Below, piece by piece: positions 2,167 through 12,284 of a DNA stretch of 33,503 nucleotides. This stretch comes from Acidobacteriaceae bacterium (GTDB lineage: Bacteria; Acidobacteriota; Terriglobia; Terriglobales; Acidobacteriaceae): the NCBI GenBank assembly GCA_025361625.1, contig JANYKL010000180.1, forward strand, positions 1 through 33,503, read 5' to 3'. Numbering within the stretch: position 1 is the stretch's first letter; each line of letters begins with the position of its first letter. Made by a program: the position numbers and the translations under genes. The notes beneath the pieces were generated by a model. That model did no database searches. It was given only the letters and a program-made list of their open reading frames with translations, and was not told where the DNA came from.

Positions 2167-2502
2167 GAAAACGTCCATTTGTGAATGTGCCCCTCATCGC
2201 AAGGCCAGGCGCGTGCTGCGTTCCAATAAGCCGTACGTTTCTAATTTTTTCGGAAGAGTGTGGGCGCGAGTGGGTTGGCAATATCCCGATTGGGCAGGCC
2301 AGTTTTTCGCGATTGCGCGGCATGAGGATCGCGCCCCCGGGGACAGAAGACCTTCAACCGGCTGCCGATGGAATACTCAGGGACGCTTCGGCTATCGCCG
2401 CGAGGACAAGGACAAGGACAAGAACTAAGGACAACGACATTCTAAGGGCGCGCAAACTCGAACTCCGCCTAGAGAGCCGGGCATGCAGGGGTGAGTGGAA
2501 CG
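2167..2502 (+). other. Intergenic stretch with short GGACAA tandem repeat
   Basis: About 335 bases separate cheW from the receptor gene. I see no protein with recognisable family features. A short hexamer repeat, GGACAA, occurs three times perfectly at 2404-2421 and once more at 2429-2434. I searched for a c-di-GMP-I (GEMM) riboswitch and found no convincing conserved core. The 3' end carries the Shine-Dalgarno-like AGGGGTGA (2487-2494) that serves the receptor start at 2503. Confidence 0.5.
2404..2434. repeat. GGACAA hexamer tandem repeat
   Basis: Three exact head-to-tail copies of GGACAA (2404-2421) are followed, after a 7-base interruption, by a fourth copy (2429-2434). The tract is purine-rich on the plus strand and lies in the non-coding gap before the receptor gene. 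Its length is not a multiple that would matter for a reading frame, because no gene spans it. It probably arose by slippage. Confidence 0.7.
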
Positions 2503-4161
2503 ATGAGAAATCTGTCACTTAAGGTGAAGCTCTTCCTGATGGTCGGGTCGGCCGTCGTCGGGTTCGCCACCTTCGGCATTCTCGCTATGACCACACTGAA
2601 CAAGGCGGAAGTGGGGAGCCGTATCTTCGAGCAGATCATGATGACGAAAGACATCAATACCGATTATGTTCCTCCGGCGCAGAGTCTCGGGTTGGCCGTT
2701 GTCCACGCCATCAAGATGGAGGAGGCGCCGGACGCAGCGACCCTCCAGAAGTTCCGGGAATGTCTGCGTCAAGACCAAAACAAATTCGACGATGGGCATG
2801 CCAAATGGATGCAGCAACTCCCCGAGGGAAAGCTTAAAGAACTGCTAGGGGGCGAAGCCTACACGACGTCGAAAGAATGGTTTCGCCTCGCCGAGCGGGA
2901 GTTCGTCCCGGCACTCGAGGCCGGAGACCGAAAGAAAGCGCACGAGATACGGATTGCACAAATGGAGCCACAGTTTGCCCGGCAGCAAGCAGCGGTCGAC
3001 GCCATCGAGAAAGCCACAAACGACATGGTGGTCGCCGACGAGGCAGAAGCAGCGGCCGTGGTAAAGAGCCGGACGCAGATGCTGGTGGTGGTGGGAATTC
3101 TGATGCTGGCAATGGTCGTAGGTCTCGGATTGATCACCGCTTTCAGCATCCTAGTTCCAATCAAGAAAACGCTCATCGTGCTGCAGGCGCTTGCCGAAGG
3201 CGATCTGCGGCAAACCGTCGCTGTCGATTCGAACGACGAAATAGGACTGATGGTGCGGGCGCTCAACCACGCGATCGGCGGGATCGCGAAGGTGGTGCTG
3301 TCGATTAGCGAGAACGCGGAGCAGGTGGCGGCGGCGAGCGAGGAATTATCCGCAACGAGCCAGCAGATTACTGCGAACTCCGAAGAAACGACCTCGCAGG
3401 CGAGAGTGGTCTCCGAGGCAGGCGGCCAGGTGAACGCCAACCTGCAAATCTTGGCGTTGAGTGCGGAAGAGATGAATTCGACGATTGGCGAGATTGCCAA
3501 GAACGCAACGGAAGCGGCTCGGGTTTCGGGCGAAGCGGTGGCGGCGGCAGAGTCGGCCAACCAGACGGTATCGAAGCTCGGCGAATCGAGCATCGAGATC
3601 GTGAAAGTGATCGAGGTGATTACCTCGATTGCGCAGCAGACGAATCTTCTGGCGTTAAACGCGACCATCGAAGCGGCGCGGGCCGGGGAGGCGGGCAAGG
3701 GCTTCGCGGTGGTGGCAAACGAAGTGAAAGAGCTGGCCAAACAGACCGCTAGAGCGACGGAAGAGATCACGCAGAAGATCGGCGTCATTCGGGAAAATAC
3801 CGGCGGAGCGGTAAGGGCCATCGTCGGCATCAAGGACGTAATCGACAAGATCAGCCACATTTCAACCGTGATTGCGACGGCGGTCGAAGAGCAGAGTGCG
3901 ACGACCAGCGAGATGTCGCGCAACGTGAACGAAGCGGCGCGCGGAGCGAGCACCATCTCCGACAACATTCAGGGAGTAGCGAGCGCCGCACAAGACACCT
4001 CAACCAATGTCGGCGAGGCCCAGATTGCGAGCGCACAACTGAGCCGCATGGCGAGCCAACTGCATGATTTGGTCGGGCGATTCAAGGTTGCGGCAGATAC
4101 CAAGCACCAGCACTCCGCGCCGTTGTGGGCGGCGGGGGCCGCCGTCGGGAGACATTCGTGA
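2503..4161 (+). CDS. Methyl-accepting chemotaxis protein
   Basis: This is a transmembrane chemoreceptor that signals to CheA through CheW. From the ATG at 2503 the 552-residue protein has TM1 at about 8-30, a roughly 160-residue periplasmic region that is probably helical (four-helix-bundle type), TM2 at about 193-215, a HAMP domain at about 213-267, and a long coiled-coil signalling domain. The conserved hairpin tip is at about 374-398 ([19 protein letters not shown]). I chose ATG 2503 because AGGGGTGA lies 8 bases upstream. The in-frame GTG at 2491 would overlap that Shine-Dalgarno element. The C-terminus has no CheR-tethering pentapeptide. Its place between cheW and cheB suggests it is the dedicated receptor of this array. 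The ligand cannot be inferred. Confidence 0.95.
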
Positions 4162-9546: not shown

Positions 9547-9732
9547 GCTCACCACGATGGTAGCAATTATTTTGATGCAAGAATCCGCCGCTAGTGCGTT
9601 CTTAAAGAGGAAGCAGTTGAAATCTCTTGGAAAAATGGCTCGTCGCCCCGCGGGCTGGTAAGGTCCTCTGATGCGGGCTTGGGGACCTAGCTTGTGTATC
9701 GAGCCAAGCCTTTGCGCACCACATCACTTGCG

Positions 9733-10143
9733 TCATAGGCGAGGCTTAGCGCAGGCAATTCTTCCGCTGTAAACCATCCGACGTCCGACGTCGGACGCGT
9801 CGCTAGCCGCCGAAAATTCACCACCCAGCCGTCGGCATAAAAAATCGATCAGCACATAGTGATAACGAATGCGGCCGCCTTCTCCGGGTATCACGCGTTC
9901 ATAAACTCCTAACATCTCCTGCGCCTCGACTATCAATCCAGTTTCTTCTAACGATTCACGGACGGCCGCTTCGCGCAGAGTCTCGCCGCATTCGAGCAAG
10001 CCCCCCGGCAACGACCACTCCCCGAGCAATGGTGCCTGTCCACGCTTAATCAGCAGTACGCGTGGAGGCGCTTCACCACTTGGCCGATCGACGATGACCG
10101 CCCCCACGCCGACCAACGGACCTTCCGGATATTCACGTTTCAT
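9733..10143 (-). CDS. NUDIX hydrolase, C-terminus altered by frameshift
   Basis: NUDIX enzymes hydrolyse nucleoside diphosphate-linked compounds. The Nudix box is complete (GGLLECGETLREAAVRESLEETGL, positions about 47-70, matching Gx5Ex7REUxEExGU). The open frame gives 136 residues. After ASDASDV the sequence loses family resemblance, while a neighbouring frame reads GWFTAEELPALSLAYD, the usual Nudix C-terminal helix, and continues to a TAG at 9687-9689. The cause is a direct 7-bp duplication, CCGACGT twice at 9778-9791. Removing one copy gives exactly 149 codons plus stop from 10143 to 9687. The copy as read is thus a recent frameshift mutant or an assembly error. It is divergent from ligD. 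Confidence 0.85.
   Translation of the reverse strand: MKREYPEGPLVGVGAVIVDRPSGEAPPRVLLIKRGQAPLLGEWSLPGGLLECGETLREAAVRESLEETGLIVEAQEMLGVYERVIPGEGGRIRYHYVLIDFLCRRLGGEFSAASDASDVGRRMVYSGRIACAKPRL
9778..9791. repeat. 7-bp tandem duplication disrupting the NUDIX gene
   Basis: CCGACGT is present twice head to tail (9778-9784 and 9785-9791). Deleting one unit restores the expected C-terminal reading frame of the minus-strand NUDIX gene. Seven is not a multiple of three, so gain or loss of a unit switches the C-terminus. Confidence 0.85.
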
Positions 10144-10331
10144 TTCTATGTTTCTTACCCGTGACGGCTTCGCCGCGCGACGAACCCCAAACAGTATATA
10201 AGTGCTGGAGTTTGATTCTCTATGGGCAACCGCAGCATCGGCTCCGGAGTCTTAGTCGACGAAGCGGTGGGCTGGCTCGGGCCTGTGCTCCAGTTGACAC
10301 CAGAGAAGGGCGATCCAATACTAAATCCGCC

Positions 10332-12284
10332 ATGTCACTAGACGAATACAAACGTAAACGCAGGTTTGAAGATACCCCCGAGCCTCCTCCAAAGATCGAA
10401 AATAAATCGCGACACCGATTCGTCGTCCAGCGGCACGCGGCTACGCGGTTGCACTACGACTTCCGGCTGGAGATGGAAGGCGTGCTCAAGTCTTGGGCTG
10501 TGCCTAAAGGCCCGTCGCTTGACCCGGCCGACAAACGTCTTGCCATGCAAGTCGAAGATCATCCTGTCTCCTACTTCGACTTCGAAGGCACGATCCCGCA
10601 GGGCAACTATGGCGGAGGCACGGTCATGGTTTGGGATAAAGGGACATGGGACCCGCTTTCGGCTGCTCCAGTGGATGGCGAATACAAAGTTGGCACGGAA
10701 AAAGAAGCGGCTGCGATGCTCGCAAAAGGAGACCTGAAATTTCGCCTGAAAGGGGAGCGACTCAACGGTGATTTTGCGCTCATACACATCAAGGCACGCA
10801 GGGCGGGAAGCAAGGGCAACGAGTGGTTGTTGATCAAGAAAAAAGATGACAATGTTGTCACAGGGTTTGATATCGATTCGTACGATACGTCGATTCTTAC
10901 CGATCGGACTATGCGACAGATCGGAGGGGATGAAGGCTCGGCCGAATGGAAGAGTAGTCGTCCAGCCGTGCGGGGCGGGGTAAAAGCCTCGTGGCTCGCC
11001 GACGCGATAGCGCGGGTCGATTCCAAGCGCAGGACGGCAGTTGTTAAGAAGCCTACGAACGCAGAGAAAGGCGCGACCTCATCTAAAAAAGCGGTCGGTG
11101 TAAAAAAAAAGTCCCTAGGCGAAAAGAATACCGAGGAAAAGGCCGAGGTCGATCAAAACTCTCCAACGCCGACTAAGGTCCGGAAGTCGACTTCAAAGTC
11201 AACTTTAAAGACAAACGCATCAGCCATCCCAAGTACGAGAGCAGCAGCCACTCCAGTGGGCACAAGTCTAGGTGCGGTGCCGGGAGCGGTGGAGCGGCCG
11301 ATGCCCAACGTTATTCAGCCGATGCTGGCTACGATTGTCGAAAAATCTTTTGATAATCCTGATTGGCTATTTGAAATCAAGTGGGATGGATTTCGCGCCG
11401 TCGCCTTTATCGATGGCGGTCGCGTACGGTTGGTGTCACGCAATCAAAACGACCTGACTGCGCAATTCCCTGAACTTGGCTCACTGCCGAAGTATGTGAA
11501 GGCAGAAAGAGCTATTATCGATGGCGAAATCGTGGCCCTTGACGATAAAGGCCGACCGTCGTTCAGTTTAATGCAGCAACGCACAGGGTTCCAGCCGGGT
11601 AAGCGTCGTTTGCCGGGTCGGGCGAACCAATCTCTGGGGATTACTTTTTACGCCTTCGACCTCCTCTACCTCGATGGCATCGACTTGCGGCGCGTGGTGC
11701 TTGAAGAGCGCAAGCGTCTGCTGCAAGAGCGAATTATCGCAAGCGGCCTCGTCCACTTCTCCGATCACTATTCCGAAAAGGGTCTCGATCTTTTCGCCGC
11801 TGCGAAAGACCGCGGTCTTGAAGGAATTGTTGCGAAGAAGCGCAATAGTCTTTACGAGGAACGCCGCTCGCGGGAGTGGCTCAAGATCAAAATTACACAA
11901 CGCCAGGAGTGCGTGATCGGGGGATATACCGATCCGGAAGGGAGCCGAGAGCATTTCGGCGCACTGGTCCTCGGTCTCTATGACCGGCAAGGCCGCCTGA
12001 TTCATGTAGGCCAGGCAGGCACGGGCTTTGACCGGAAGGGATTGAAGGAGTTGTTCGAGCGCTTGCAGCCGCTGAAGACGAAAGAAAATCCTTTTCATGG
12101 CTCGCTCGGTGGATTGCGAAAAGTTCATTTCGTTCGTCCTGAACTCGTGGCCGAGATCAAGTTTTCGGAGTGGACCCACGAGACGGCGGGGGGCGGAGTG
12201 AAATTGCGCGCGCCCGTGTTCATGGGATTGAGAGCAGATAAATCGGCAGCCGAGTGCCGCCTCGATGAAGCAATTGCAAGCTGA
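10332..12284 (+). CDS. ligD: ATP-dependent DNA ligase LigD (phosphoesterase-ligase form)
   Basis: LigD seals breaks in bacterial non-homologous end joining and trims 3' ends. From ATG 10332 the 650-residue protein has an N-terminal 3'-phosphoesterase domain (about 20-175). It shows the HxxxRxHYDFR signature (H35, R39, H41, D43, R45) and H77 (EDHPVSYFDFEG). A Lys/Ser/Thr/Ala-rich linker follows (about 230-320). The ligase core has nucleotidyl-lysine K350 in EIKWDG, and a C-terminal OB domain follows (about 530-640). The primase/polymerase domain found in larger LigDs is absent, and no ku gene lies in the window. I chose ATG 10332 because conserved sequence begins at SLDEYKRKR. The open frame extends upstream to a GTG at 10161, but that part has no family likeness and no good Shine-Dalgarno sequence. 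Confidence 0.94.
   Translation: MSLDEYKRKRRFEDTPEPPPKIENKSRHRFVVQRHAATRLHYDFRLEMEGVLKSWAVPKGPSLDPADKRLAMQVEDHPVSYFDFEGTIPQGNYGGGTVMVWDKGTWDPLSAAPVDGEYKVGTEKEAAAMLAKGDLKFRLKGERLNGDFALIHIKARRAGSKGNEWLLIKKKDDNVVTGFDIDSYDTSILTDRTMRQIGGDEGSAEWKSSRPAVRGGVKASWLADAIARVDSKRRTAVVKKPTNAEKGATSSKKAVGVKKKSLGEKNTEEKAEVDQNSPTPTKVRKSTSKSTLKTNASAIPSTRAAATPVGTSLGAVPGAVERPMPNVIQPMLATIVEKSFDNPDWLFEIKWDGFRAVAFIDGGRVRLVSRNQNDLTAQFPELGSLPKYVKAERAIIDGEIVALDDKGRPSFSLMQQRTGFQPGKRRLPGRANQSLGITFYAFDLLYLDGIDLRRVVLEERKRLLQERIIASGLVHFSDHYSEKGLDLFAAAKDRGLEGIVAKKRNSLYEERRSREWLKIKITQRQECVIGGYTDPEGSREHFGALVLGLYDRQGRLIHVGQAGTGFDRKGLKELFERLQPLKTKENPFHGSLGGLRKVHFVRPELVAEIKFSEWTHETAGGGVKLRAPVFMGLRADKSAAECRLDEAIAS

What the first reader, a model, noticed from the sequence alone, without database searches (positions are those of the whole stretch)
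9687..10143. NUDIX gene switched by a 7-bp tandem duplication
CCGACGT is duplicated at 9778-9791. Removing one copy restores the expected C-terminus (GWFTAEELPALSLAYD...) and gives exactly 149 codons plus stop at 9687. This is either a fresh slippage mutation or a reversible on/off site.
Basis: seen in the sequence. Interest (0 to 1): 0.5.

Follow-up and report, generated by a model that had tools for sequence, protein, structure and literature searches.

The report
Nudix gene frameshifted by 7-base duplication
In this soil-bacterium genome one ordinary Nudix (nucleotide-hydrolase-type) gene has been knocked out of frame by an extra copy of seven bases, most likely a recent chance mutation (or an assembly error) rather than an evolved on/off switch.

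Summary
On the minus strand a Nudix gene (10143 to 9687) carries CCGACGT twice (9778-9791), which ends the frame after 136 codons. Leaving out one copy gives 149 codons plus the stop at 9687. The 29 related genes aligned at DNA level all lack the extra 7 bases. Of 90 distinct related genes, 87 could be read to a stop and all 87 run open through the site (139-167 codons). Past the duplication the old frame still looks constrained, so the event is recent, or not real. The protein loses part of the last strand and both C-terminal helices of the fold, so it is probably inactive. The 'reversible switch' half is not supported: two perfect copies plus one imperfect, no comparable repeat in 86 related genes, and no excess of 7-base arrays in 333,757 bases of this genome (22 seen, 22.8 simulated). 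The one-copy site was already a 6-of-7 near-repeat, which would explain slippage here. No reads and no second genome of the species were available, so assembly error or a minority allele stays open. Ordinary finding.

The parts
9687..10143 (-). Nudix gene, full extent including the out-of-frame remainder (149 codons plus stop if one 7-base copy is left out)
   Evidence: Pfam PF00293 NUDIX, E 1.3e-18, profile positions 4-102 of 134 only; orthologue L049 matches 4-131 of 134; length
9733..10143 (-). Open reading frame as it stands, 136 aa; residues 121-136 are out-of-frame sequence
9777..9797 (.). 7-base array TCCGACG TCCGACG TCGGACG: two perfect copies and a third with one mismatch; holds the 12-base palindrome TCCGACGTCGGA
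   Evidence: palindrome read directly from the sequence
9687..9776 (-). Former C-terminal coding segment (29 codons and stop), now out of frame, still similar to relatives
10161..12284 (+). Divergent neighbour, context only: LigD-type ATP-dependent DNA ligase (phosphoesterase and ligase domains); start codon uncertain
   Evidence: reading frame; Pfam LigD_N, DNA_ligase_A_M, DNA_ligase_A_C; divergent arrangement in 64 of 90 related loci

Best explanation
A conserved Nudix gene of an uncultured acidobacterium suffered one recent 7-base tandem duplication, probably by replication slippage at a site that was already a 6-of-7 near-repeat and a palindrome. The insertion shifts the frame after codon 120, replaces the last 29 residues by 16 unrelated ones, and removes part of the last beta strand and both C-terminal helices, so the product is probably misfolded or inactive. 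It is a fresh loss-of-function allele with no sign of an evolved switch. Shown: the duplication, its effect on the frame, its absence from the related genes examined, and constraint on the old frame. Inferred: slippage, loss of function, the organism's group (from its relatives' record titles), and that the allele is real rather than an assembly product.
For: 29 of 29 related genes aligned at DNA level lack the 7 bases (the best-scoring 29 loci fetched, while one search found matches in 56 other genomes). Of 90 distinct related genes, 87 reach a stop and all 87 are 139-167 codons long; 2 run off the contig; 1 (L072) has undetermined residues in its tail and ends at 130, so it is not decided. 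Downstream of the array, in the old frame, pN is 0.11-0.23 against pS 0.61-0.91 for the 14 nearest relatives; upstream pN is 0.14-0.18 and pS 0.54-0.77. The one-copy site has 6 of 7 matches at period 7; none of 86 relatives exceeds 5. The Pfam match stops at profile position 102 of 134, against 131 in an orthologue. The AlphaFold2 model of orthologue L049 (best of five models, pLDDT 93.7) has strand 110-117 and helices 118-124 and 128-140; the break corresponds to its residue 114-115.
Against: No reads, so the allele itself is unproven. The genome is a 196-contig draft. In 2 of 9 syntenic stretches from related drafts a neighbouring gene matches in two frames that meet at a homopolymer run, so single-base frameshifts of technical or natural origin occur in such drafts. 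The window's Nudix branch is longer than most (0.35 against a median of 0.16), which may mean relaxed selection before the event; in the same call, however, only 1 residue departs from otherwise invariant columns (0-4 in the 20 relatives).
Confidence: 0.62

Rival explanations
1. Assembly error or consensus choice: the assembler wrote a 7-base duplication that most cells do not carry, or picked a minority strain's allele.
For: Draft of 196 contigs. The old frame looks fully constrained, as it would if the gene were intact in the cells. Neighbouring genes in 2 of 9 related stretches carry apparent single-base frameshifts. The abstract of PMC11017572 reports that many bacterial pseudogenes are assembly artefacts.
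Against: The lesion is an exact duplication at a repeat-prone site, a common signature of natural mutation (recalled), unlike the homopolymer indels seen in the related drafts. The window holds no undetermined bases. A real mutation just as recent would leave the same constraint pattern, so one search does not separate the two.
Confidence: 0.28
2. Phase-variable on/off site: the gene is switched reversibly by gain and loss of the 7-base copy.
For: A tandem duplication can collapse back. Precedents: pneumococcal capsule genes (Waite 2001 and 2003, seen only as titles in the reference list of PMC4022640, one of which speaks of high-frequency phase variation) and 6-base repeat changes in mutL (passages of PMC2955026). 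The one-copy site is repeat-prone.
Against: 0 of 29 related genes have the extra copy and none of 86 has a comparable repeat. No excess of 7-base arrays in the genome sample. A passage of PMC4022640 puts reversion at about 1e-5 at most for insertions of up to nine bases. The gene family is Nudix; that such enzymes are cytosolic and not typical contingency genes is recalled.
Confidence: 0.06
3. The 136-residue form is a functional short variant, or the frame is rescued by translational frameshifting.
For: The Nudix box lies upstream of the break and is largely kept (the motif itself is recalled).
Against: Columns invariant in the 18 aligned relatives lie beyond the break (W115, F116, L126 in L049 numbering). 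All 87 relatives read to a stop have an unbroken frame, so no inherited recoding site is seen.
Confidence: 0.04

Closest known systems
Short tandem duplications in pneumococcal capsule genes (Waite and colleagues 2001, 2003; seen only as citations in PMC4022640)
   Same: A short tandem duplication inside a reading frame abolishes the product and could be lost again.
   Different: The cited titles report phase variation of a surface capsule; here neither reversion nor a surface trait is shown.
6-base repeat copy-number change in mutL of Salmonella and E. coli (passages of PMC2955026)
   Same: Slippage at a short tandem repeat inside a housekeeping gene changes its function.
   Different: mutL has three repeats, shared with close relatives, and a change that keeps the frame; here the array is seen in this genome only and shifts the frame.
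Nudix hydrolase family, PF00293
   Same: Domain and Nudix box; related genes across the genus and family.
   Different: This copy lacks the last quarter of the domain. No NCBIfam model reaches its curated cut-off for it or for orthologue L049, so the substrate is unknown.

Membership tests
Phase-variable (contingency) locus by simple sequence repeats | Repeat array conserved or variable in copy number at the same site among relatives | tested here: not met
   0 of 29 relatives aligned at DNA level have the extra copy; none of 86 reaches 6 of 7 period-7 identity there
Phase-variable (contingency) locus by simple sequence repeats | Many repeat units, giving a high slippage rate | tested here: not met
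   two perfect copies and one imperfect copy
Phase-variable (contingency) locus by simple sequence repeats | Both states present in one population | not testable with these tools
   no reads; the genome collections hold one genome per species
Recent frameshift pseudogene by tandem duplication | Relatives have the intact gene; exact duplication at the point of frame loss | tested here: met
Recent frameshift pseudogene by tandem duplication | Little decay of the out-of-frame remainder | tested here: met
   also expected under assembly error
Recent frameshift pseudogene by tandem duplication | Lesion present in the organism's DNA (reads) | not testable with these tools
   no reads available
Nudix hydrolase (PF00293) | Significant match to the family model | tested here: met
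   E 1.3e-18, 67.7 bits against cut-off 21.1, but only profile positions 4-102 of 134
Nudix hydrolase (PF00293) | Hydrolase activity | not testable with these tools
   needs an assay

The most novel reading that the evidence does not exclude
The site is a low-rate reversible switch of a Nudix gene next to a LigD ligase gene, poised by a near-repeat and palindrome that arose in this lineage, so that the population holds both the 136-residue and the 149-residue form.
Probability: 0.05. Interest if true: 0.4.

Novelty: new member of a known kind. Interest (0 to 1): 0.12.

Why it matters
Little, beyond accurate annotation: the gene should be called a frameshifted Nudix gene and checked against reads before any claim of gene loss. 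It also illustrates that a near-repeat plus palindrome in one lineage can seed a frameshift by short duplication. If reads showed both forms, it would be an unusual case of switching in an uncultured soil bacterium.

Tried and rejected
Surveyed the window plus 20 stretches of the same genome for tandem duplications whose removal would lengthen a reading frame. The simple test was only slightly above a null of 3000 random deletions (180 of 1301 arrays, 13.8%, against 11.7%, at a gain of 13 or more codons). A codon-usage test was underpowered: it returned nothing, not even the Nudix site. A frame-openness test on 307 arrays listed 34 rows including the Nudix site. Of the other 33 I read eight, those with periods 7 and 16, plus one more site; I judged none a convincing second duplication frameshift. 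That is judgement by reading, not a homology test, and the 25 rows with period 5 were not examined.

Rejected two apparent breaks in related Nudix genes: in G018 the gene is split by undetermined bases, and in G028 the two pieces join as one in-frame match with an insert. One search used a mistyped range for L005; one search corrected it. Literature searches looked for precedents of slippage switches and for assembly artefacts; they were not a search for this locus, and I make no claim about what is in print on it.

Full report
What is there. On the minus strand, 10143 down to 9687, lies a Nudix gene. Its frame as written stops after 136 codons at 9733. CCGACGT stands at 9778 and again at 9785, and the period-7 array runs to 9797 with a third, one-mismatch copy. 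Leaving one copy out gives 450 nt: 149 codons and a TAG ending at 9687.

Is it chance? A 7-base tandem repeat as such is not remarkable: 22 arrays in 333,757 bases of this genome (window plus the first 20 kb or less of 20 of 196 contigs) against 22.8 +/- 5.8 in 12 order-3 Markov simulations. The link to the frame is what matters. In a DNA alignment with 29 related genes the window row alone has 7 extra bases at this place: 29 of 29 lack them in the printed part, gene base 319 on.

Relatives. The protein finds a match in 57 of 61 genomes including its own; the best 29 outside this genome were fetched as loci. Together these are 109 loci with 90 distinct genes. Two run off the contig; one (L072) has undetermined residues in its tail and ends at 130 codons, so it is undecided; the other 87 are open to a stop at 139 to 167 codons. 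The query for the named collection was an alignment of the first 115 residues, so the ranking did not favour intact tails. The collections hold one genome per species, and records of the window's own genome may be left out (note), so variation within the species could not be tested.

Age of the lesion. Downstream of the array, in the old frame, the codons show few amino-acid changes (pN 0.11-0.23) and many silent ones (pS 0.61-0.91) against the 14 nearest relatives; the upstream part gives 0.14-0.18 and 0.54-0.77. That fits a very recent event, and equally an assembly error. The glycine before the tryptophan, where 74 of 88 relatives with the motif have arginine, is seen in 3 of the 88. One window residue departs from columns otherwise invariant in the 20 same-genus relatives used; the relatives show 0 to 4 such departures. 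The window's branch in that tree is longer than most (0.35 against a median of 0.16).

Why here. With one copy left out, the site already has 6 of 7 matches at period 7; the best of 86 relatives has 5. It also holds the palindrome TCCGACGTCGGA (read from the sequence). Slippage or template switching at such a site is the natural mechanism. This is inference.

Effect. The frame is lost after codon 120; 29 residues are replaced by 16. The Pfam NUDIX match of the window protein ends at profile position 102 of 134, that of orthologue L049 at 131. In the AlphaFold2 model of L049 (best of five models, mean pLDDT 93.7, pTM 0.87; the five range from 56.2 to 93.7) the lost part holds the end of strand 110-117 and helices 118-124 and 128-140. 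W115, F116 and L126 are invariant in 18 relatives. Loss of function is likely but not shown. The best sequence matches of L049 among solved structures are MutT/Nudix proteins such as 4dyw and 2yyh, and no NCBIfam model reaches its cut-off, so the substrate is unknown.

Switch or not. Nothing points to an evolved switch: an array seen in this genome only, low copy number, no excess of such arrays in the sample. Precedents show that short duplications can switch genes (passages and reference titles in PMC4022640, one title speaking of high-frequency phase variation; passages of PMC2955026). The same PMC4022640 text expects reversion at about 1e-5 at most for insertions of up to nine bases. The remaining serious rival is technical: a draft in 196 contigs, apparent single-base frameshifts at homopolymers in neighbouring genes of 2 of 9 related stretches, and the abstract of PMC11017572, which reports that many bacterial pseudogenes are assembly artefacts. 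Only reads can settle it.

Verdict. Observation confirmed; fresh mutation favoured (0.62) over assembly error (0.28) and over a reversible switch (0.06). Ordinary.

Noticed in passing
window 9687-12284 and related loci: The Nudix gene and a LigD-type ligase gene stand back to back: in 64 of 90 distinct related loci a ligD match lies upstream of the Nudix gene, in all 64 divergently; 23 of 90 have 1500-2000 bases upstream and no ligD match; 3 of 90 have under 300 bases there. A possible functional link to DNA repair.
   Followed up: partly
L141:7990-8160 (same genome, contig C170): A gene of repeated 'LGTLGG...GINxxGxVVG' motifs appears to change frame near a GGGGAAAA run about 100 bases after another 7-base tandem repeat. 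It looks like a separate single-base frameshift; Pfam gave no match for the stretch given.
   Followed up: partly
L034:5823-5925 and L040:14458-14471: In two related draft genomes, cheR and an HDOD gene near the Nudix locus match in two frames that meet at G-rich and C-rich homopolymer runs.
   Followed up: partly
L138:7548-7612 (same genome, contig C140): A 16-base tandem array (about 4.1 copies, 90% match) covers the very end of a gene whose product looks macro-domain-like (recalled, not searched).
   Followed up: no
window 2403-2439: A hexanucleotide AGGACA array (6.0 copies, 84% match) lies shortly before the reading frame at 2491-4161.
   Followed up: no
window plus 20 stretches of the same genome: Tandem arrays with periods 6, 9 and 12 exceed simulation (143 against 79.3, 6 against 1.0, 7 against 0.2; shorter-period runs included), as does 11 (2 against 0.2), while 4, 5, 7, 8 and 10 do not. 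The first three fit in-frame repeats in coding sequence.
   Followed up: no
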